Below, piece after piece: positions 3,067 to 63,820 of a DNA stretch of 64,000 nt (position 1 is its first letter; the number at the start of each line of letters is the position of its first letter). This stretch comes from Sphingomonadaceae bacterium. Its GTDB lineage: Bacteria > Pseudomonadota > Alphaproteobacteria > Sphingomonadales > Sphingomonadaceae. A model generated the notes under the pieces. That model saw only the letters and a program-made list of their open reading frames with translations. It was not told the DNA's origin and did not search any database. The translations under genes were made by a program, and so were the position numbers. The stretch covers positions 124,001-188,000 of the forward strand of contig JAFAZF010000063.1 in the NCBI GenBank assembly GCA_019239915.1. Reading direction: 5' to 3'.

Positions 3067-4512
3067 ATGCTCAGGACACTCTTCCTTCAGGCCCCCTCCT
3101 TCGACGGCTATGACGGCGGCGCCGGCGCGCGCTACCAGATGAAGCGCGAGGTCAAATCCTTCTGGTATCCGACCTGGATCGCGCAGCCCGCCGCGATGAT
3201 CCCGGGATCGAAGCTGATCGACGCGCCCGCGCACGACCTCAGCTGGGACGACATCGCGCACGAGTTCGACGATCGCGATCTCGTCATCCTCCACACTTCG
3301 ACGCCCTCGTTCAACCAGGACATCCGCACCGCGCGGCTGATCAAGGAGCGCAATCCGGCGATCAAGGTCGGCTTCGTCGGCGCCAAGGTGATGATCGAGG
3401 ATGAGAAGAGCCTCGCCGCCTGCGACGCGATCGATTTCGTCTGCCGCGAGGAATATGACTTCACCTGCGTCGAGCTGGCGCAGGGCCGCCCGTTCAGCGA
3501 AATCGACGGCATCACCTGGCGTTCCCCGAGCGGCGATCTCATCCGCAACAAGGATCGCGCGCAGATCGAGGACATGGACGTCCTCCCGATGGTCAGCCCG
3601 ATCTACAAGCGCGACCTCGATACCTCGAAATATTTCGGTGGGTACCAGCGCCACCCCTATATCAGCTTCTATACCGGGCGCGGCTGCAAGAGCCGCTGTA
3701 CCTTCTGCCTGTGGCCGCAGACGATCAGCGGACATCGCTATCGCCACCGCACCGTGCCGAAGGTCATCGAGGAAGTGCAGTACATCCTGCGCGAGATGCC
3801 CGAGATCAAAGAGATCTTCTTCGACGACGACACGCTGGCCGACGCGCATGATTTCGTCGTCGAGCTGTCCGGCGAGCTCGCCAAGCTCGGCTTCGGCAAG
3901 CCCGGCTTCCCGGTCACCTGGGGCTGCAACGCCAAGGCCAACGTGCCGCAGCCGGTGCTCGTGGCGATGAAGGCGGGCGGCTGCCGCGTGCTGCTGGTCG
4001 GCTACGAGAGCGGCAACCAGAAGATCCTGCATAACATCAAGAAAGGTCTGCGCACCGACGTCGCGCGCCAGTTCACCAAGGACGCGCACGCGCTCGGCCT
4101 GACGATCCACGGCACCTTCATCCTCGGCCTGCCGGGCGAGACGCTCGAGACGATCGAGGAGACGATCCGCTACGCGATCGAACTGAACCCGCACACCATC
4201 CAGGTGAGCCTCGCCGCGCCCTATCCCGGCACCTTTCTCTATAAGCAGGCGGTCGAGAACAACTGGTTCGACGGCAGCGATCAGCTGCTGACCGACGGCG
4301 GCAACCAGATCGCGCAGCTCAGCTATCCCCACCTTTCGTCGGCGGTGATCTTCGACAAAGTCGAGGAGTTCTACAAGCGCTTCTACTTCCGCCCGCGCAA
4401 GATCGGCGCGATCGTCGGCGAGATGGTCCGCGACTGGGACATGATGAAGCGCCGCCTGCGCGAGGGCGTCGAGTTCTTCGACTTCCTGCGGCGGCGTAAG
4501 GAAGCAGCGTAA
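3067..4512 (+). CDS. hpnJ: Hopanoid biosynthesis radical-SAM protein HpnJ
   Basis: B12-binding radical-SAM enzyme of 481 residues. HpnJ homologues are required to make the cyclitol-ether head group of composite hopanoids, acting on glucosaminyl-type bacteriohopanetetrol. The N-terminal cobalamin-binding-like half begins MLRTLFLQAPSFDGYDGGAG, close to family consensus. The [4Fe-4S] cluster cysteines are C207, C211 and C214 (GRGCKSRCTFC), followed by the TIM-barrel segment with FFDDDTLADA and the SAM-contact region GCRVLLVGYESG. ATG 3067 is the family start; no strong SD precedes it. No other hpn gene lies nearby: the gene stands alone between repeat-filled gaps. Assignment is strong at family level; the exact product in this organism is inferred. 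Confidence 0.9.
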   Translation: MLRTLFLQAPSFDGYDGGAGARYQMKREVKSFWYPTWIAQPAAMIPGSKLIDAPAHDLSWDDIAHEFDDRDLVILHTSTPSFNQDIRTARLIKERNPAIKVGFVGAKVMIEDEKSLAACDAIDFVCREEYDFTCVELAQGRPFSEIDGITWRSPSGDLIRNKDRAQIEDMDVLPMVSPIYKRDLDTSKYFGGYQRHPYISFYTGRGCKSRCTFCLWPQTISGHRYRHRTVPKVIEEVQYILREMPEIKEIFFDDDTLADAHDFVVELSGELAKLGFGKPGFPVTWGCNAKANVPQPVLVAMKAGGCRVLLVGYESGNQKILHNIKKGLRTDVARQFTKDAHALGLTIHGTFILGLPGETLETIEETIRYAIELNPHTIQVSLAAPYPGTFLYKQAVENNWFDGSDQLLTDGGNQIAQLSYPHLSSAVIFDKVEEFYKRFYFRPRKIGAIVGEMVRDWDMMKRRLREGVEFFDFLRRRKEAA

Positions 4513-4522
4513 GGCCGGGGCA

Positions 4523-4597
4523 GTGCTCCTGCGAAAGCAGGAGCCCGAGCCTCAGGCACGATGTTCGCGGCTCCGGCTCCTGCTTTTGCAGGAGCAC
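4523..4597. repeat. Inverted repeat GTGCTCCTGC..GCAGGAGCAC
   Basis: Arms 4523-4551 and 4569-4597 are mirror images apart from a few bases. Each arm is itself a hairpin (GCTCCTGCGAAAGCAGGAGC and GCTCCTGCTTTTGCAGGAGC). It lies 10 bases after the hpnJ stop, a position fitting a factor-independent terminator although there is no clear U-tract. Confidence 0.75.
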
Positions 4598-4630
4598 GAT
4601 TGCGCTGGATGGGATGAAGCCCTCATACAT

Positions 4631-4726
4631 CGTCATCCCCGCGAAGGCGGGGATCCATTCATACTGTGCGGTCGCGACTGAGGCGCAACGCTGCGGTTAT
4701 GGATTCCCGCCTTCGCGGGAATGACG
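4631..4726. repeat. Inverted repeat CGTCATCCCCGCGAAGGCGG
   Basis: The left arm CGTCATCCCCGCGAAGGCGG (4631-4650) is mirrored by the right arm ending CCGCCTTCGCGGGAATGACG (4707-4726). This arm is a frequent intergenic element in proteobacterial genomes. Lies between convergent hpnJ (plus) and the NTF2-like gene (minus), after the repeat at 4523. Confidence 0.8.
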
Positions 4727-4760
4727 GTCGGGTGGGGTGAGCGGCAGGCTCCGCTTCGCC

Positions 4761-5387
4761 TCAATCATAGTCGAGCAACGCCATCGCCTCAGGCGATTTC
4801 TTTCGCGCTTCGCGACGCTGCGCGAGGATCGGATCGACATGCCCGAAGCGATCCGGCCGGATCTCCAGCGGGCGCTGATAGGAGGGGTCGCTGCGATCGC
4901 GCGTCGACGGCTCCATGTCGGCGATCGCCGCATTCTCGGCATGAGTGAGGCCGTCGGCGCGGCCGCCGGTGGTCCAGTCCATCAGGCATTTGCGCGCGAC
5001 GATGCCCCAGCGTCCGTCCCGCTTCTCGAGCCGGTCGACATAGCGGCCGCCGCCCATGCTGTAGGGCTGGCCGGTGCGGTTCATGCCGACATACATCCAG
5101 TAGGTCTCGGCATGCGCGGTATCGCCGTCGAGATCGCAGACATGGTTGGTGATGATGTGCTGCGTGATCGTGTTGTTCTCGGCGTGCATGGAAAGCGCGC
5201 ACTCGGCGAACTGCTGCGGATCGCCGACATAGCAACCATGATCGTCAACCGCGTCGGCGTGGTAGACCGAGAGCAGCAGATCCTTGTCCAGCCGATCGAC
5301 GGCGCGGCCGTAGCGGCTCATCAGATCGCGGATCTCCATGCGGTCCTTGATCTCGGTGACCGTCGCGGCGAGCTCTTCCAGCGTCAT
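4761..5387 (-). CDS. NTF2/SnoaL-like protein
   Basis: Protein of 208 residues with the cone-shaped NTF2 fold common to SnoaL cyclases, ketosteroid isomerase-like proteins and small dehydratases. Typical features are IRDLMSRYGRAVDRLDKDLL (helix 1), YHADAVDDHG, HIITNHVCDLDGDTAHAETY (central strands) and GRYVDRLEKRDGRWGI, followed by a C-terminal extension of about 60 residues ending in DPILAQRREARKK. Such proteins are abundant in sphingomonad catabolic regions and often have unknown substrates. H, D and Y residues line the expected pocket, but no catalytic pair can be named. Divergent from nothing; it sits downstream of the cys operon with a 58-base gap and could be co-transcribed with it. Confidence 0.75.
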   Translation of the reverse strand: MTLEELAATVTEIKDRMEIRDLMSRYGRAVDRLDKDLLLSVYHADAVDDHGCYVGDPQQFAECALSMHAENNTITQHIITNHVCDLDGDTAHAETYWMYVGMNRTGQPYSMGGGRYVDRLEKRDGRWGIVARKCLMDWTTGGRADGLTHAENAAIADMEPSTRDRSDPSYQRPLEIRPDRFGHVDPILAQRREARKKSPEAMALLDYD

Positions 5388-6216: not shown

Positions 6217-8129
6217 CCCTCGCGCTCCAGCAGCCGCTCGACGATCAGGTCGGCCGCCTGCTCGGCAGTCATGTTGGTCGTGTCGACGCGGATCTCGGGG
6301 TTCTCCGGCGGCTCATAGGGGCTGTCGATGCCGGTGAAGTTCTTGAGCTGGCCAGCACGCGCCTTGGCATAGAGCCCCTTCACGTCGCGCTTCTCGGCCT
6401 CGGCGAGCGGCGTGTCGATATGCACCTCGATGAACTCGCCCTCCGCCATCATCTGGCGGACCAGCGCGCGCTCGGCGCGGAACGGCGAGATGAACGCTGT
6501 GAGCACGATCAGCCCCGCGTCGGTCATCAGCTTCGCGACCTCGCCGACGCGGCGGATATTCTCGACGCGGTCGGCCTCGGTGAAGCCGAGATCCTTGTTG
6601 AGCCCGTGGCGCACATTGTCGCCGTCGAGCAGGAAGCTGTGACGGTTCATGCGCGCCAGCTTGCGATCGACGAGGTTGGCGATCGTCGACTTGCCCGCGC
6701 CCGACAGGCCGGTGAGCCAAACCACGGCCGGCTTCTGGTTCTTGAGGCCGGCGCGCTTCTCGCGGCCGACGTCGAGCGCCTGCCAGTGGACGTTCTCCGC
6801 ACGCCGCAGCGCGAAGTGGAGCATGCCGGCGGCGACGGTGGCGTTGCTGATCTTGTCGATCAGGATGAAGCCGCCGAGCGTGTGGTTGTCGCCATAGGGC
6901 TCGAACACGATCGGCCGGTCCGTCGAGAGGTTGGCGATACCGATCGCGTTCAGATCCAGCGTCTTCGCCGCGAGATGCTCCATCGTGTTGACGTTGACCT
7001 GATATTTCGGCGCCTGGATCTGCGCGCTCACGGTCTGTGTGGCGAGCTTCAGCCAATAGGAGCGGCCGGGCAGCATTTCCTCGTCCGCCATCCACACGAT
7101 CGTCGCCTCGAACTGGTCGGCGGCCTGCGGCGGGCTGTCGGCGACCGCGATGACGTCGCCGCGCGAACAATCGATCTCGTCGGCGAAGGTAAGCGTGACC
7201 GACTGGCCGGCGACCGCCTGATCGAGGTCGCCATCCAGCGTGACGATGCGTGCGACGGTCGAGGTCTTGCCCGAGGGCAGCACGCGGATCTTGTCGCCCG
7301 GCTTGACCGTGCCGCCGGCGATGAGCCCGGAGAAGCCGCGGAAATCGAGATTGGGGCGGTTGACCCACTGCACCGGCATGCGGAACGGCTTGGCCTGGTC
7401 CGAGACCTGATCGAGCTCGACCGTCTCGAGATGCTCGATCAGCGCCGGACCTTGGTACCACGGCGTGTTCGGGCTCGGGCCGGTGATGTTGTCGCCCTTG
7501 AAGCCGGAAATCGGCATCGCGACGAAGCTCTCGATGCCGATCGAGTCTGCGAATGCCTTGTAGTCGGCGACGATCTCGTCGAACCGCGCCTGGCTATAGT
7601 CGACCAGGTCCATCTTGTTGACCGCGAGCACGATGTGCCGGATGCCGATCAGGTGCGCGAGATAGCTGTGCCGCCGGGTCTGGACGAGCACGCCCTTGCG
7701 CGCGTCGGTCAGGATCACGGCGAGATCGGCGGTCGACGCGCCGGTCACCATGTTGCGCGTATATTGCTCGTGGCCGGGCGTATCGGCGACGATGAACTTG
7801 CGCTTCTCGGTGCCGACGAAGCGGTAGGCGACGTCGATCGTGATGCCCTGTTCGCGCTCGGCGGCGAGGCCGTCGACAAGCAGCGCGAAGTCGATCTCCT
7901 GCCCCTGGGTGCCGACCTTCTTCGAATCCGCCTCCAGCGCGGCGAGCTGATCCTCGAAGATCATCTTCGAATCGTAGAGCAGCCGGCCGATCAGCGTCGA
8001 CTTGCCGTCGTCGACCGACCCGCAGGTGATGAAGCGCAGCAGCGTCTTGTGCTGATGGACCTCGAGATAGGCGTCGATGTCCTCGGCGATGAGCGCGTCG
8101 GTCTTGTAGATGGGATCGGCGTTCGTCAT
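6213..8129 (-). CDS. cysNC: Bifunctional sulfate adenylyltransferase subunit 1 / adenylylsulfate kinase CysNC
   Basis: Fusion protein of 638 residues. The N-terminal CysN part is a translational GTPase that drives APS formation with CysD: P-loop GSVDDGKST at 37-45, [12 protein letters not shown] switch II, NKMD, then two beta-barrel domains. The C-terminal CysC part (from about 445) phosphorylates APS to PAPS: P-loop [27 protein letters not shown] and [14 protein letters not shown] fusions are common in alphaproteobacteria. Start ATG 8129 ([18 protein letters not shown]). The SD is weak, and an inverted repeat begins only 11 bases upstream, separating the gene from cysD. Overlaps cysQ by four bases. 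Confidence 0.96.
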
Positions 8130-57840: not shown

Positions 57841-58986
57841 CTAGTGTGGCGCCGGCTCGGAACTGCCCATGATCCAGCTCCGCCTTATCTGCCAGTCGTC
57901 ATCCATCAGGACGAGGTCGGCCGAGAGGCCGGGCGCGATCGCACCGATGCGGTCGCCGATCCCGAGGAAAGCCGCCGGCGACGCGGATGCCATGGCGACC
58001 GCCTGACCGAAGTCCGCACCGACTTGCCCGACCATGTTCCGAACCGCCTGCCCCATCGTCAATGTCGAGCCGGCAAGCGTCCCGTCGGCATCGACCAGCC
58101 GTTTCCCGACGCGAGCGATCTCGCGCCCCTGCAGGAGGAAGCGATCGACGCCGGCATCGGTCAGCGCCATCGCGTCCGTCACCAGCATCAGCCGCTCATG
58201 GCCCTTGGCCCTGAGCGCGACGCGCGCGGCGGCCGGATGGACGTGACAGCCGTCGACGATCAGCCCCGCGAAGACGTCCCCGCTCTCCAGCGCCGCGCCG
58301 ACCATGCCTGGAGCGCGGCTGGTCAGGGGAGACATCGCGTTGAACAGGTGTGTGAAGCCGGTCAGGCCTTCGTCGATCGCGCGCCGCACCGTCTCATAGT
58401 CTGCGTCGCTGTGGCCGGCCGCCACGATCACGCCGGCATCGACCAGCGCGGCGATGTCACCCGGCTGCACGCATTCCGGCGCCAGCGTCACCAGCGTGCG
58501 GCCATGCCTTGCCGAGGTCAGCAGGTCGATCGCCGCGCGGTCGAGCGTGCGCAGGCGCGCGCCGTCATGAACGCCACGGCGCGCCTGGCTCAGAAACGGT
58601 CCCTCGATGTGGATGCCGAGAATGCCCGGCACGCCTTGCTCGATCGCGGCGTCGACCGCGGCGATCCCCGCAGCGACGACGTCCAGACTATCGCTGATCA
58701 GCGTCGGCAGGAGACCGGTCGTGCCGAACCGACGATGCGCGGCGGCGATCGTCGCGATCGTCTCGACAGCCGGACGATCGTTGAACAGCACGCCGCCGCC
58801 GCCGTTGACCTGCGTGTCGATGAAACCGGGCAGCAGCATGTCCCCGTCGCAATCGACGATCGAGGCGCCGGCGAGCGGGTCGTCCGTCACCGAGAGGATC
58901 CGGCCGTCGGCGACGTTGACGGCGAGGCCTTCGCACAGCCCCTGCGCCAGCAGCACACGCGCGTTGACGAGTGCGAACGGCATCAC
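57841..58986 (-). CDS. nagA: N-acetylglucosamine-6-phosphate deacetylase NagA
   Basis: Amidohydrolase of 381 residues that removes acetate from GlcNAc-6-P. Metal motif region GFIDTQVNGGGGVLFND (the family Q/N variant), HIEGPFLSQARRGVHD with the metal Glu, VAAGHSDADYETV (His), GFTHLFNAMSPLTSRAPGMVG, and LVTDAMALTDAG with the catalytic Asp. Start ATG 58986 overlaps the stop of the SIS gene by four bases (ATGA). Third gene of the amino-sugar operon; feeds GlcN-6-P to the SIS enzyme. Confidence 0.95.
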   Translation of the reverse strand: MMPFALVNARVLLAQGLCEGLAVNVADGRILSVTDDPLAGASIVDCDGDMLLPGFIDTQVNGGGGVLFNDRPAVETIATIAAAHRRFGTTGLLPTLISDSLDVVAAGIAAVDAAIEQGVPGILGIHIEGPFLSQARRGVHDGARLRTLDRAAIDLLTSARHGRTLVTLAPECVQPGDIAALVDAGVIVAAGHSDADYETVRRAIDEGLTGFTHLFNAMSPLTSRAPGMVGAALESGDVFAGLIVDGCHVHPAAARVALRAKGHERLMLVTDAMALTDAGVDRFLLQGREIARVGKRLVDADGTLAGSTLTMGQAVRNMVGQVGADFGQAVAMASASPAAFLGIGDRIGAIAPGLSADLVLMDDDWQIRRSWIMGSSEPAPH

Positions 58987-60020
58987 CGCGTCTCCGTCAC
59001 TTTCACGAGATGGGGCGGCCTGTCCGGATCGCGGCCGCGGGCGACGGCGAGCGCGTTCGCGAAGCGATAGAAGCTTTGGATCAGCAGGATCGGCTGGATC
59101 AGCGCATCGGCCGCAAGCGCGGGAAGCGCGAGCCCGGGTGCGCCAACCGGCAAGCCGGCAGTGAGCAGGACCGCGTCGCGCGCGCTGAACTCGGCGGCCA
59201 GACCGGCGACGCTGCTCCGCGATTCATCGCTTTGGGCGAAGAGCAGCACCGGAAAGCCGCGCTCGACCAGCGCCATCGGGCCGTGGCGGACCTCCGCCGC
59301 GCTGAACGCCTCGGCATGCAAGCCGCACGTCTCCTTGAGCTTGAGCGCCGCCTCCTGCGCGACGCCATAGCCGTGGCCGCGGCCGACGACGTAGAGGCTG
59401 TGCGCCGCTTTCAGTATCGGCAGCGCCGCGCTCCAATCGAGCCCCCAAGCGCGCTCGAGCGCGTCCGGCAATGCGGCGAGCGCGGCGTCATAGCCGGGTC
59501 TGCGCGTCCACTCGGCGATCAGATGAAGCAGCGCCGCGAGCGCGGCAATGAAGGACTTGGTTGCGGCGACGCTGCGCTCGGGCCCGGCACAGAGCGGAAT
59601 CGCGACGTCCGCAGCGGCGAACAACGGCGACGTCTCGTCGTTGACCAGCGCGACGAGCAGCGCGCCGCGCGCCTGCGCTGCGGTGGCGGACAGCAGCAGA
59701 TCGGGGCTTTGCCCGGACTGCGAGATCGCGAACACCACGGCACCCGCCATCGCCGGCGCCGCGTTGTAGACCGATGCGACCGATGGCGACAAAGACGCGG
59801 CGAGCACGCCAGCATGAGTCTCGATCAGATAGCGACCGAATGTGGCGGCATTGTCCGAGCTGCCGCGCGCGAGCGTCCCGATCGTCGCGGGTGAGAGGTC
59901 GCGCAATCTCCGGCCGAGCGTCGCCATCGCCGCGCCGTTGCGTGCCAATTGCCGGCGCACGATCGCGCCGGCCTCGGCCGCCTCGCGGTACATCAGGCTC
60001 GCTTCGATGCGGTCGTTCAA
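58983..60020 (-). CDS. SIS-domain glucosamine-6-phosphate deaminase/isomerase-like (NagB-II/AgaS type)
   Basis: Two-SIS-domain protein of 345 residues, related to the isomerase half of GlmS. RGSSDNAATFGRYL in SIS-1 and VVGRGHGYGVAQEAALKLKET in SIS-2 bind the sugar phosphate. SQSGQSPDLLLS and GPERSVAATKSF follow. There is no glutaminase domain, which points to deamination of GlcN-6-P to fructose-6-P instead of synthesis. Start is probably TTG 60020 (LNDRIEASLMYREA), with GAAGG 7 bases upstream; ATG 59993 is the alternative. Between the kinase and nagA genes. Confidence 0.87.
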   Translation of the reverse strand: MNDRIEASLMYREAAEAGAIVRRQLARNGAAMATLGRRLRDLSPATIGTLARGSSDNAATFGRYLIETHAGVLAASLSPSVASVYNAAPAMAGAVVFAISQSGQSPDLLLSATAAQARGALLVALVNDETSPLFAAADVAIPLCAGPERSVAATKSFIAALAALLHLIAEWTRRPGYDAALAALPDALERAWGLDWSAALPILKAAHSLYVVGRGHGYGVAQEAALKLKETCGLHAEAFSAAEVRHGPMALVERGFPVLLFAQSDESRSSVAGLAAEFSARDAVLLTAGLPVGAPGLALPALAADALIQPILLIQSFYRFANALAVARGRDPDRPPHLVKVTETR

Positions 60021-60075
60021 CGGCGTGCCTTCATCAGCAGAGCGATACCGTCGCCGGTCGGCAACCGCTGCGCGG

Positions 60076-60954
60076 TCAGCCGGCACCGATCGCCTGACCG
60101 GCCAAGCGGATCGCGCCGTCCAGTGCGTCGCCCCTGGGTTGCGTGACAGCGATGTCGCCGAACTCGAGCCAGGATGCCATGGAAATCGAGAGCCCGCCGA
60201 GAAGGCAGATCCGCTTCGCTCCCGACCGCGCCAATCGGGCGATCATGCCGTCGAGCAGCATGGCGCCGTGGCGAACGATGGCGGTTGCCGTCTCATCGCC
60301 TGCGGACGCCGCCGCGAGCACGTCGGGCGCCAGGCGCGCGAAATCGGCGGGCGTTGCCGATCGCGCCCAACCGATCGTGTTCTGCGAGCTGCCGAGCTTC
60401 TCCCGCAGCGTATGCGTGAACGGCGACCAGGCTTGCCGGCCGTCGACGCACCACAGCATCTGGCGAACCGCCTCGCGCCCCAACCAGTTGCCGCTCCCTT
60501 CGTCCGACACGAGCGCGCCATAGCCTCCGACCGCGAACCGGCGCCCGCCGACGATCGCAAAGCCGACGGAGCCGGTCCCGATCACGAGGACGGCGCCATC
60601 CTCGCCCGCGAACGCGCCGCGCAAAGCGACGAGGGCATCGGTTTCGACGACGCACGAGTGAAACATCTCGAGCGGCCAGTCTGCCGGCGCGCGGGGATCG
60701 AGCGGATCGAGACCCGCCAATCCCAGGCATGCAGCCGTATGCCGACGTTCGCCGGGATCAATCCCCGCCTCCCGATAGGCGATGCTGCCGGCAAGCTCGA
60801 TCGCGCGCCAGCTTGCGTCCGGATCGGAGAAGACATTGGCGGAGCCGGCGCGTCCCTCGCCGAGCAGCCGACCACGCCCGTCGGTGAGCCGCGCGCGGCA
60901 ACTCGTTCCGCCGCCGTCGATCCCCAGCAGCCAGCGCGGCGACGGCGTCTTCAT
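60076..60954 (-). CDS. N-acetylglucosamine kinase (BadF/BadG/BcrA/BcrD ATPase family)
   Basis: Sugar kinase of 292 residues in the ASKHA fold. LLGIDGGGTSCRARLTDGRG is phosphate-1 and VLVIGTGSVGFAIVGGRRFAVGGYGALVSDEGSGNWLG is the phosphate-2/substrate loop. ICLLGGLSISMASWL near 245 is the adenosine motif. Probably phosphorylates GlcNAc for NagA. Starts ATG 60954 (MKTPSPRWLLGID). First gene of the kinase-SIS-nagA operon; no transporter or regulator is next to it. Confidence 0.88.
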   Translation of the reverse strand: MKTPSPRWLLGIDGGGTSCRARLTDGRGRLLGEGRAGSANVFSDPDASWRAIELAGSIAYREAGIDPGERRHTAACLGLAGLDPLDPRAPADWPLEMFHSCVVETDALVALRGAFAGEDGAVLVIGTGSVGFAIVGGRRFAVGGYGALVSDEGSGNWLGREAVRQMLWCVDGRQAWSPFTHTLREKLGSSQNTIGWARSATPADFARLAPDVLAAASAGDETATAIVRHGAMLLDGMIARLARSGAKRICLLGGLSISMASWLEFGDIAVTQPRGDALDGAIRLAGQAIGAG

Positions 60955-61338: not shown

Positions 61339-62493
61339 ATGTCGATCGCGCAGCTCGCCTCGGTCGAGGGAAACAAGAAAGACAAGAACGGCCAGCCGGT
61401 CGTCTGCGTCTATGTGATCAATCCGCCGATCTACGCCATCTATCGGACCCGGCTGCGCGTCATGATCGAATTCGCGGACGCGGCCCAGGTTGCGGCCGAG
61501 CAGCGAACACGGCTGGCGCCACTTGCTCCGCTGCGCGGGCAGATCAGCGGCCTGATCGACGGCTGGCATGACAATGCGCGCAAGGATCTCAAGGCGCGCG
61601 CCGATCATCTCGATCGTCGTGTCGCCGATGCCCTGACGATAGCGTTGGAAGGTGACGTGCCGAGCGCCGCCGTGCTGCTCACCGAGATTCGCGACGAGAT
61701 CATCGACGATCGGAAATCCAAGGCGCGCGTGCTCTACCTGCTGGCCGCCGTGATAACGAGCACGATGCTCGCGCTCGCCGTGCTGGCTTCCTATGCAAGC
61801 GGGTTTGGGCCGCATTGCGTCGTCACTGCCTCGCATCATCCGGCGAGGGCGCTGGTGCTGTGTCCTTCCGATCCCGCCGCCGGTCTGCTGAACGGCGCAG
61901 GCGGTGGCATATTGGGCGCCTTCTTCTCGATCGCGATCGGCTTGCGCAGCCGATCGATCCTCACCGACTTTCATTGGGTCGACAACGCCAGCGACGCCGT
62001 GCTGCGCGTCGTCGTCGGCGTGATCTCGGCCATCCTGATCACCTGCCTGATCGGGGCGCACATGGTCGCCGGCTTGGCCTTCGGGCCAATGAACGCGACG
62101 GCTGCGGCGGCGGCCGGCGATCCGCTGATGGTGAGCTTCGTGTTCGGCTTCCTGGCCGGCTTCTCGGAACGGCTGATCCCCGACCTGCTCGCCAAAACCA
62201 CCGTGATCGCGTCGACCCCCGGCGCGCCACCATCGGGTGACGCCGCCGCCACGATCGCAGTCGTCAACAAGATCAGCGGCACGCAGCCGCTCATCGCCAA
62301 CGCTGCCGCGATGAAGACAGGCAATGCGGCGCCCGCTGCGGCGCCGGCAGATGGCGCAGCGGACGCCGAGGCAGATGCCGATTCCTGCCTGTGCGACGCG
62401 CCGCCCGTCACCGGCGAGACGGTCACCGCCGACGTCGACCTGCCGGTGGCGGTCGGCGGCGTGTCGGCGGACACGCCGGCACCGGCTCTCTGA
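61339..62493 (+). CDS. Membrane protein of unknown function, paired with a peptidoglycan hydrolase
   Basis: Protein of 384 residues. Cytoplasmic N-terminal region (1-130) with a charged helix (DNARKDLKARADHLDRRVAD). Transmembrane segments at about 131-153, 183-202, 221-247 and 262-278, then PFGP..FLAGFSERLIPDLL (FSERLIPDLL is the most conserved-looking part). A long low-complexity tail (AAAPADGAADAEADADS) ends in CLCDAPPVTGE. Start ATG 61339 with GGGGGAAAG upstream; the frame continues to 61252 without a better start. Sixteen bases before the hydrolase gene. The FSER..PDLL type region occurs in poorly characterised bacterial membrane proteins. Confidence 0.8.
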   Translation: MSIAQLASVEGNKKDKNGQPVVCVYVINPPIYAIYRTRLRVMIEFADAAQVAAEQRTRLAPLAPLRGQISGLIDGWHDNARKDLKARADHLDRRVADALTIALEGDVPSAAVLLTEIRDEIIDDRKSKARVLYLLAAVITSTMLALAVLASYASGFGPHCVVTASHHPARALVLCPSDPAAGLLNGAGGGILGAFFSIAIGLRSRSILTDFHWVDNASDAVLRVVVGVISAILITCLIGAHMVAGLAFGPMNATAAAAAGDPLMVSFVFGFLAGFSERLIPDLLAKTTVIASTPGAPPSGDAAATIAVVNKISGTQPLIANAAAMKTGNAAPAAAPADGAADAEADADSCLCDAPPVTGETVTADVDLPVAVGGVSADTPAPAL

Positions 62494-62509
62494 TCGAGGA
62501 CATCCGCCG

Positions 62510-63820
62510 ATGGTCTATTCGCTCACATGGCTTCCGGCGGTGCTCGAGGATGCCGGGCTGAAGGTCGCCGAATGCCCTGGCTGGCGAACCCGTGGACGCG
62601 GCGACGTCGGCGCCATCAAGGGCGTGATGTGCCACCATACCGCCGGCGCGCAAGCCGGCGTGATGCCGAGCCTGGGCACGATCACCAGCGGACGCCCGGC
62701 GAGCGCGAACGCGCCGGCGCTGCCGGGGCCGCTGGCGCAGCTCGCGCTCGGCCGCGACGGCACCTTTTTCGTCGTCGCGGCAGGCCGCGCCAATCACGCA
62801 GGCGCAGGATCCTGGCAGGGAATCGCCACCGGCAACAGCAGCTTCATCGGTATCGAGGCCGAGAATAGCGGTACCACCGAACCCTGGCCGGACGTCCAGC
62901 TCGATGCCTACCAACGCGGCGTCGCCGCGATCCTCAAGCAGATCGGCGCAGCCGCGATCATGTGCTGCGGCCACAAGGAATATGCGCTGCCCACGGGCCG
63001 CAAGGTCGACCCGGACTTCGCCATGGACGACTTTCGCCATCGCGTCGACACGATCCTTACGGGTGGTGCGCAGGTCCGTCCCCCGATCCCAGCAACCGAT
63101 GCGAGCGGCCGCCCGACGCTGCGGCGGGGCGCAAGCGGGGCGCTCGTCTCCGAGATCCAGCGCGCGCTCGGCATAGCCGCCGACGGCGCGTTCGGTGTGC
63201 AAACCGAGGCCGCCGTTCGTTCGTTCCAGCGCGCGCGTGAGCGGGTGCCCGACGGCATCGTCGGCCCCAAAACCTGGTCCGACATTCTGAGCTCCGCACC
63301 GTCTGCAACGCCTGCGGCGCAGACCGGCGTAGGAACGCCGGCCGCGCCGCATTCAGCGGCTGCAGCAGGGCCCACCGAGCTGAAGCCGAGCGAGGCTTGC
63401 TTCAAGACGATCATGGCCGCGGAGGGCTGCCGTCTCGAAGCCTATCCCGATCCTGCCACCGGCGGCGACCCGTGGACGATCGGCTGGGGCACGATCGGCG
63501 AGGGGATCGCGCGGGGCGTAAGCTGGACCCAGCAACAATGCGACGAGCGACTGGCGAGCGACGTCACCGATTTCGCCGCCGGAGTCGCGCACTTGCTCGA
63601 TGGCTGCTCGACCAGCCAGGCGCAATTCGATGCCTTGACCAGCTTTTCCTATAATCTCGGCCTCTCGGCGCTTGGCGATTCAACGCTGCTTCGCCTGCAC
63701 AGGGCTGGCGATTTCGACGCCGCCGCCGGCGAGTTCGGAAAATGGATCCATGCCAACGGCAAGGTCATGGCTGGCCTCGTCAAGCGCCGCGCGGCCGAAG
63801 CGGCGCTGTATCGCGGCTGA
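62510..63820 (+). CDS. Three-domain peptidoglycan hydrolase (amidase-2, PG-binding, GH24 lysozyme)
   Basis: Endolysin-like enzyme of 436 residues. (a) Amidase_2 domain, about 30-185: zinc ligands in MCHHTAG (H42/H43), GHKEYA (H155) and KVDPDF (D168). (b) PG-binding-1 domain, about 200-262: RRGASGALVSEIQRALG..DGAFGVQTEAAVRSFQ. (c) Ala/Pro linker. (d) GH24 lysozyme, about 296-436: E305 (AAEGCRL), D314 (AYPDP), T323 (WTIGWG); the D-T gap is three residues longer than in T4 lysozyme. No signal peptide or SAR helix, so export needs another route. Start ATG 62510 after GAGGACATCCGCCG. Confidence 0.9.
   Translation: MVYSLTWLPAVLEDAGLKVAECPGWRTRGRGDVGAIKGVMCHHTAGAQAGVMPSLGTITSGRPASANAPALPGPLAQLALGRDGTFFVVAAGRANHAGAGSWQGIATGNSSFIGIEAENSGTTEPWPDVQLDAYQRGVAAILKQIGAAAIMCCGHKEYALPTGRKVDPDFAMDDFRHRVDTILTGGAQVRPPIPATDASGRPTLRRGASGALVSEIQRALGIAADGAFGVQTEAAVRSFQRARERVPDGIVGPKTWSDILSSAPSATPAAQTGVGTPAAPHSAAAAGPTELKPSEACFKTIMAAEGCRLEAYPDPATGGDPWTIGWGTIGEGIARGVSWTQQQCDERLASDVTDFAAGVAHLLDGCSTSQAQFDALTSFSYNLGLSALGDSTLLRLHRAGDFDAAAGEFGKWIHANGKVMAGLVKRRAAEAALYRG

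What the first reader, a model, noticed from the sequence alone, without database searches (positions are those of the whole stretch)
61339..63820. Two-gene module: four-helix membrane protein plus amidase/PG-binding/GH24 fusion hydrolase
The hydrolase carries two different cell-wall cutting activities and a wall-binding domain in one chain, but has no signal peptide or SAR helix. The only neighbour is a membrane protein with four predicted helices and a conserved-looking FSERLIPDLL end, 16 bases upstream. No phage structural, holin-annotated or integrase genes are near. This could be a stand-alone lysis or gene-transfer-agent release unit, or a conflict/abortive system in which the membrane protein gates the hydrolase. 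The hydrolase domains are directly visible; the partnership and purpose are inferred.
Basis: partly seen in the sequence, partly recalled or inferred. Interest (0 to 1): 0.65.

Follow-up and report, generated by a model that had tools for sequence, protein, structure and literature searches.

The report
Wall-cutting enzyme with docking-tail partner
Two neighbouring genes encode a phage-type cell-wall-cutting enzyme and a membrane protein ending in a short conserved tail that is predicted to grip such an enzyme; the same tail sits on different partner proteins beside this enzyme in bacteria of several phyla, which suggests a shared, so far unnamed way of holding a lysis enzyme.

Summary
The pair is real. 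The hydrolase (62510-63820) carries Amidase_2, PG_binding_1 and GH24 domains, without a visible signal peptide. The membrane protein (61339-62493) has four helices and no Pfam match. Its true end is not FSERLIPDLL but a tail about 100 residues further on (62362-62466, ...DLPVAVGGV). This tail is the conserved element. It ends the gene directly upstream of the amidase in 73 of 80 genome loci (six phyla), in the window and on three plasmids. The rest of the partner varies: this 4-helix protein, other membrane families, a Tle1-like phospholipase, or only about 40 residues. Only 2 of 80 viral relatives of the amidase have the tail. A tail profile found only the window's copy among 385 class genomes. 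AlphaFold2, run on an in-frame read-through of a relative (L013), places the tail motif at pLDDT 88-97 beside the amidase-PG_binding unit. The two close relatives without an intact tail lack the PG_binding domain. Best reading: a domesticated phage endolysin held by a docking tail, here at the inner face of the membrane, until lysis or release. Docking is predicted; the purpose is inferred. A gene-transfer-agent or known-defence role is not supported.

The parts
61339..62493 (+). 4-helix membrane protein, 384 aa, with soluble N-domain (aa 1-130), four helices and C-terminal docking tail
   Evidence: ORF; no Pfam, NCBIfam or PADLOC match and only chance-level PHROGs hits; 18-member family alignment A6; AF2 model mean pLDDT 75
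61729..61785 (+). hydrophobic segment 1 (aa 131-149)
   Evidence: Kyte-Doolittle scan; helix 107-153 in the model
61882..61938 (+). hydrophobic segment 2 (aa 182-200)
   Evidence: helix 179-201
61996..62052 (+). hydrophobic segment 3 (aa 220-238)
   Evidence: helix 213-239
62101..62157 (+). hydrophobic segment 4 (aa 255-273)
   Evidence: helix 262-291
62362..62466 (+). C-terminal tail; core LPVAVGGV at 62440-62463
   Evidence: best hit of the tail profile in the genome, E 6e-6, next 0.16
62494..62509 (+). 16-base gap with Shine-Dalgarno-like GAGG (62496-62499)
   Evidence: sequence
62510..63820 (+). hydrolase, 436 aa
62612..63013 (+). Amidase_2 domain
   Evidence: model of the relative L013 matches AmpDh2/AmpD/AmiD
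63077..63103 (+). interdomain linker around PPIPATD, proposed docking strand for the tail
   Evidence: isolated bridges in the L013 model (inference); linker motif survey
63173..63277 (+). PG_binding_1 domain
63419..63799 (+). GH24 (phage lysozyme) domain
   Evidence: PDB lysozyme matches, best 9kbq E 2e-26

Best explanation
The hydrolase is a domesticated phage-type endolysin (amidase, wall-binding domain and lysozyme) made without a visible export signal. Its partner carries a conserved C-terminal tail of about 30 residues that docks on the amidase-PG_binding unit, probably by pairing with the linker between the two domains. In this genome the tail is fused to a 4-helix membrane protein with both ends inside, so the enzyme would be held at the inner face of the cytoplasmic membrane, stored or restrained. 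It would reach the wall only when the membrane opens, by the partner itself or by other damage, leading to lysis or release of cell contents. Shown by sequence: gene order, domains, conservation of the tail, change of partners. Predicted, on a relative: docking. Inferred: inside topology, restraint, trigger and lysis.
For: Tail directly upstream of the amidase in 73 of 80 genome loci plus window, L006, L008, L009; L, P and G codons vary synonymously, so conservation is at protein level. Tail gene and amidase gene overlap or are at most 1 base apart in 47 of 77 loci. In the 18 aligned 4-helix proteins the tail is as conserved as the N-domain (mean majority fraction 0.62 vs 0.59) and far above the segment before it (0.35). 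AF2 of an in-frame read-through of L013: tail motif residues 21-30 pLDDT 88 and 31-40 pLDDT 97, connecting stretch 54-62, pTM 0.87; isolated bridges at R37/V40 and I264/T267 fit antiparallel pairing (37+267 = 40+264; inference). [IV]P linker in 68 of 71 parsed tail loci (75 used; the 4 unparsed also show IP by eye). L078 and L081, the two close relatives without an intact tail, have Amidase_2 but no PG_binding match. Met at position 52 in 70 of 73 tail loci versus 1 of the 44 viral loci that could be parsed, of 79. K+R per 10 aa 2.08 / 0.63 / 1.73 / 0.63 / 1.11 along the 4-helix proteins fits both ends inside.
Against: No activity, binding or localisation was measured. The docking model is one relative (L013, whose partner is a short soluble peptide, not a membrane protein), tethered in cis by reading stops as residues; coordinates and PAE were not available, and the pairing partners are deduced, not printed. 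Met52 and linker correlations are not independent of descent. The tail-bearing phages L096 and L097 have Ala at 52; L098 has the linker without a tail; Acaryochloris L010 has Met52, PG_binding and a shortened linker but no tail. One tail-like match, in G159 (E 8e-4), has no amidase motif near it. 26 of 77 partners were classed as short without a membrane part. No holin family and no known fold was found for the 4-helix protein.
Confidence: 0.55

Rival explanations
1. The tail is an inhibitor or chaperone of the amidase (antitoxin-like): it keeps the enzyme silent in the cytosol; the fused domains only decide where the complex sits.
For: The minimal partner is hardly more than the tail, 37-45 residues (L029, L035, L041, L046, L080), so recruitment to a membrane cannot be its only job; 8 short partners carry two copies, one of them with a degenerate first copy; tail gene and amidase gene overlap or are at most 1 base apart in 47 of 77 loci; the docked motif is at high pLDDT in the L013 model.
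Against: Docking site appears to be the interdomain linker, not shown to cover the zinc site; no toxicity data; membrane and lipase fusions are left unexplained.
Confidence: 0.3
2. A holin/endolysin-type release device (Type 10 secretion-like): the 4-helix protein is the hole-former that lets the hydrolase through for non-lytic or lytic secretion.
For: Membrane protein plus endolysin without a visible signal in one gene pair; phage contigs L096/L097 carry a tail peptide beside the amidase, and by reading L097 has a lysozyme-like ORF before it and a small membrane ORF after it.
Against: No holin family match, a large soluble N-domain; spanins were not searched for; relatives of the 4-helix protein occur without a hydrolase of this family.
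Confidence: 0.25
3. The amidase and tail-bearing partner are cargo or lysis factors of contractile injection systems (eCIS); the tail is a loading or pairing signal.
For: eCIS_core (PF13699) in 27 of 50 and Pvc16_N (PF14065) in 24 of 50 genomes with the module (window plus 50 of the loci); among Alphaproteobacteria, sorted by record title, 7 of 22 versus 15 of 289 in a class sample (Fisher p 2.8e-4); eCIS_core within 10 kb on the same contig in L059, L068, L071, L072. An eCIS-associated peptidoglycan hydrolase toxin is reported (PMC8213781, passages only).
Against: 23 of 50 genomes, the window's own among them, have no eCIS_core hit; the other pairs are unlinked or only weakly so (L043, E 8.6e-5); genome size and lifestyle were not controlled; the background sample covers one class only; three of the four linked loci are one genus.
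Confidence: 0.12
4. The neighbours are only accidentally adjacent and the tail is chance or a Shine-Dalgarno by-product.
For: In loci with gaps of 2 or less, GGAGG in the tail codons often lies in Shine-Dalgarno position.
Against: Synonymous variation of the Leu, Pro and Gly codons, also in loci with gaps of 10-105 bases; conserved Thr and Asp positions; near absence upstream of viral amidases.
Confidence: 0.02

Closest known systems
Type 10 secretion systems / domesticated holin-endolysin cassettes (PMC9527704 outline and abstract; PMC10847048 and PMC10109510 search listing only)
   Same: Membrane protein and a phage-derived peptidoglycan hydrolase used outside a phage
   Different: Partner here has no holin family match, carries a docking tail, and is often replaced by soluble proteins; spanins were not searched for
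Phage endolysins with Amidase_2 and PG_binding (PHROG 880; Bradyrhizobium phage ppBdUSDA122-1 amidase, 52% identity over aa 1-201)
   Same: Same amidase core
   Different: 78 of 80 viral-contig relatives show no upstream tail (L166 has only 13 bases upstream); the window enzyme adds a GH24 domain
AmpD/AmpDh2/AmiD amidases (PDB 4bj4, 2y28, 2bh7)
   Same: Same fold of the amidase domain
   Different: Those are recycling or exported enzymes; no tail-bearing partner is known to me (recalled)
Tle1-like T6SS phospholipase effectors (PF09994)
   Same: One tail-bearing partner (L037) is a Tle1-like protein, E 4.6e-85
   Different: Only 1 such partner noticed among 77; the partners were not all scanned

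Membership tests
Phage-type endolysin (Amidase_2 + PG_binding + GH24) | Catalytic and wall-binding domains above curated cut-offs, no signal peptide | tested here: met
   (hydrophobicity only)
Phage-type endolysin (Amidase_2 + PG_binding + GH24) | Lies in a phage or prophage | tested here: not met
   The nine neighbours scanned are ordinary
Holin / Type 10 secretion | Membrane partner belongs to a holin family | tested here: not met
   0 Pfam hits, only chance-level PHROGs hits
Holin / Type 10 secretion | Pore formation and dependence of hydrolase export on the membrane protein | not testable with these tools
   needs experiment
Gene transfer agent lysis unit | GTA structural genes in the genome | tested here: not met
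   PF13547 GTA_TIM absent from the own genome, found in the Caulobacter control; one family only
Known anti-phage defence system | Match to a defence model | tested here: not met
   0 PADLOC hits for both window proteins
Tail-amidase module described here | C-terminal tail on the gene directly upstream of the amidase | tested here: met
Tail-amidase module described here | Tail docks on the amidase-PG_binding unit | tested here: inconclusive
   High-confidence AF2 placement for the relative L013, not for the window pair, no experiment
eCIS-associated toxin | eCIS genes in the genome | tested here: not met
   window genome: 0 hits for PF13699 and PF14065

The most novel reading that the evidence does not exclude
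A portable endolysin-docking tail: a peptide of about 30 residues, first paired with a phage endolysin, has been grafted onto at least five protein families that BLAST does not join (4-helix, 'EVA' and two other membrane families, Tle1-like phospholipase) and also acts alone, forming a cross-phylum system in which bacteria store a wall-cutting enzyme inside the cell under control of interchangeable sensor or membrane-attack modules.
Probability: 0.45. Interest if true: 0.78.

Novelty: new variant of a known kind. Interest (0 to 1): 0.6.

Why it matters
If the tail truly binds and restrains the enzyme, it is a compact natural handle for controlling a lytic amidase. It would explain how bacteria of several phyla keep an endolysin without export signal in the cytoplasm, and it gives a simple sequence marker for self-lysis or release modules that the family libraries searched here do not name. 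It also makes a direct test possible: one peptide, one enzyme, binding and activity.

Tried and rejected
Membrane-protein search alone: only 3 of 98 relatives (own, G069, G090), nothing in genome contigs or phages, 2 plasmids. The amidase search opened the case.

Shine-Dalgarno by-product: rejected as the cause of the tail. General sorting tag: not supported; in 385 class genomes, own included, only the window's own tail was found. Of the 5 tail hits in 296 order genomes, four sit before an amidase (window, G258, G315, G275); the tails of G315 and G275 read the same as those of L059 and L041, so they are not independent. The fifth, G159 (E 8e-4), lies in a longer frame without an amidase motif. 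A 35-position profile is strict, so divergent tails can be missed.

Monophyly of the tail clade: not shown. The quick tree of 118 rows (34 of the 80 viral ones) has low support (19 of 109 branches starred), 4 changes of tail state and 23 of partner class; row L074 is a frameshifted outlier, and the tail-bearing phage rows L096 and L097 were labelled virus. The Fisher value for tail versus linker used hand-made counts with Acaryochloris as lacking the linker (it has a shortened 'VPDN'), and related rows; I do not rely on it.

4-helix fold: no Foldseek match at E <= 0.001 and VIA-align Z below 7; an unlisted fold is not excluded. Separate tail rows could not be aligned to the fused query by MAFFT, so the model used 6 read-through rows and one tail row. 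Insertion-site comparison in the genus led nowhere: the flanking BadF gene has only 29-31% matches in 3 of 9 relatives. Promoter scan: nothing above chance.

Rows dropped: A3 used 65 of 76 tail references; L066, L075 and L085, which lack the Cys, were among the 11 left out, so Cys is not invariant overall. The tail regex itself demands L-P, so its invariance is by construction. L074 and L083 (broken amidase frames) were left out. L078 has a degraded tail-like end (...DADLPKPTS) and was counted as without tail. The first viral scan missed L096; searches show it. In one search one no-tail viral row, L098, has the linker motif. Partner classes rest on BLAST links and a Kyte-Doolittle scan; distant kinship between classes is not excluded.

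Full report
The observation. Both genes exist as described. The hydrolase runs from 62510 to 63820 (436 aa) with Amidase_2, PG_binding_1 and Phage_lysozyme domains, all over their curated cut-offs. The membrane protein runs from 61339 to 62493 (384 aa), has four hydrophobic segments and matches no Pfam family; PHROGs shows only chance-level hits, and NCBIfam and PADLOC none. The nine neighbours scanned are ordinary metabolism.

The element that matters. The membrane protein is rare: 3 of 98 relatives had a match, its own genome and two weak ones, and none of 50,697 phage records did. On an R. etli plasmid a 37% relative sits 14 bases before an amidase that is 58% identical over aa 1-259. On Hymenobacter and Caballeronia plasmids the gene before the same amidase is a different membrane protein, yet all four proteins end alike: a Cys, then ...D..LPxAxGG(V/I). 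A search with the amidase alignment in genome contigs found 129 relatives and kept 80. In 73 of these 80 the gene directly upstream ends in the tail. The seven without it are L078, L081 and the five most distant ones (L087-L091, 47-50% identity); L078 has a degraded remnant. Tail-bearing loci come from Pseudomonadota, Bacteroidota, Cyanobacteriota, Acidobacteriota, Gemmatimonadota and Myxococcota by the labels; many are metagenome bins. The codons of the conserved residues vary synonymously, so the protein is conserved; in loci with gaps of at most 2 bases GGAGG can double as a Shine-Dalgarno site. Tail gene and amidase gene overlap or are at most 1 base apart in 47 of 77 loci.

What carries the tail. 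Of 77 tail-bearing partners (73 genome loci, window, three plasmids), 26 were classed as short and soluble (two cut by contig ends), 21 as the 'EVA' membrane family (my label), 19 as the window's 4-helix family, 4 and 4 as two further membrane families and 3 as others. One of the others, L037, is a Tle1-like phospholipase with the tail at its end. The smallest partners are about 40 residues, hardly more than the tail. Eight short partners have two tails (L014-L017, L019, L023, L030, and L026 with a degenerate first copy). Partner classes change 23 times on the amidase tree, whose support is low. The constant part is thus the tail, not the membrane domain.

Specificity. Of 80 viral-contig relatives of the amidase (best 80 of 203), only L096 and L097, which pair in the tree, have the tail upstream, as short separate ORFs; L166 has too little upstream sequence to tell. 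A tail profile built from 65 of 76 references found only the window's own tail in 385 genomes of the class, own included. In 296 genomes of the order it had 5 hits, own included, 4 of them before an amidase. The tail therefore goes with this amidase, with one weak exception (G159).

Docking. In L013 the tail gene and the amidase gene are in frame. Read through, and aligned with five other read-through rows, one tail and 55 amidases, the window's among them, AlphaFold2 gave pTM 0.87 with the tail motif at pLDDT 88 and 97, the connecting stretch at 54-62 and the Cys region at 53. In the model of the window's membrane protein, without the enzyme, the tail reaches only 60-73. The secondary-structure string has isolated bridges at R37 and V40 of the tail and at I264 and T267 in the linker between amidase and PG_binding; the sums 37+267 and 40+264 are equal, as antiparallel pairing requires (inference). 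Further support: 68 of 71 parsed tail loci have an [IV]P motif in that linker (75 used; the four unparsed ones show IP by eye), and L078 and L081, the two close relatives without an intact tail, match Amidase_2 but not PG_binding. Met52 is found in 70 of 73 tail loci and 1 of 44 parsed viral loci, of 79. Against it: the tail-bearing phages have Ala52, L098 has the linker without a tail, Acaryochloris has Met52, PG_binding and a shortened linker without a tail, and none of these counts corrects for descent.

Topology and mechanism. Positive charges along the 18 aligned 4-helix proteins are dense on the N side and in loop 2, intermediate after helix 4, and sparse in loops 1 and 3, which fits both ends inside. 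The enzyme has no visible signal peptide, so tail and enzyme can meet in the cytoplasm. I conclude that the enzyme is most likely held at the inner face of the membrane. That it waits there for membrane opening, and that the result is lysis or release, is inference. Since the tail also exists alone, it may do more than anchor: inhibition or folding help is the main rival.

Context leads. Genomes with the module often have eCIS markers: eCIS_core in 27 of 50 and Pvc16_N in 24 of 50 (the window's genome and those of 50 loci, two of which share a genome). Among Alphaproteobacteria, sorted by record title, it is 7 of 22 versus 15 of 289 in a class sample (p 2.8e-4 without size matching). Only four loci (L059, L068, L071, L072) have eCIS_core within 10 kb (a fifth hit near L043 is weak), three of them one genus, and the window's genome has none. 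I keep this as a lead.

Known or new. The enzyme domains are well known. For the tail I found no matching family: the tail-bearing partners scanned gave nothing over a cut-off that covers the tail in Pfam, NCBIfam or PADLOC; five short tail proteins had no PHROGs hit up to E 1; there was no PDB match beyond chance. The paper searches listed nothing that names the motif or the arrangement in its title or abstract start; of the papers listed there I opened only PMC9527704, at outline and abstract. The nearest known kind is the domesticated holin-endolysin cassette that this review describes; the pair fails its defining holin test but may work in a similar way.

Noticed in passing
window 57841-60954, - strand: Genes with amidohydrolase, SIS and BadF-type ATPase domains, which I read as an N-acetylglucosamine utilisation set (nagA-like and so on), diverge from the module; the BadF gene has only 29-31% matches in 3 of 9 congeneric genomes.
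   Followed up: partly
L006, L015, L019, L022, L025, L032, L043, L045, L051, L059, L079 and window: 12 of 79 hydrolases of the family have an extra C-terminal region (length over 400 aa), of several unlike kinds; 9 of the 12 have the 4-helix partner. The window's is GH24; five others were scanned (L006; L015, L025, L043, L059) and none had a Pfam match over its cut-off there.
   Followed up: partly
L096 4822-5001 and L097 4798-4992: Two phage contigs carry a short tail peptide beside the amidase; in L097, by reading, a lysozyme-like ORF (4244-4801) precedes and a small membrane ORF (6360-6701) follows, so the tail may have begun in a phage lysis module.
   Followed up: partly
L189, L190, L191 (plasmids of Rhizobium and Paracoccus): EVA-family membrane proteins without tail lie beside a cell wall hydrolase and a metallophosphoesterase or a vanadium haloperoxidase: the family seems to partner several enzymes.
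   Followed up: no
L006 10621-12663; L072 8062-9366; L008 8845-11796: Downstream genes of some modules are papain-like peptidase, patatin phospholipase, and a trypsin/subtilase fusion: a possible wider lytic set.
   Followed up: no
L012, L013, L018, L028: Tail peptides with Lys/Arg-rich extensions.
   Followed up: no
L023, L029, L035, L041, L080, L085 near the amidase: Six loci share another small protein family (rep L035 5139-5762, N-terminal hydrophobic stretch), no Pfam match for that one.
   Followed up: no
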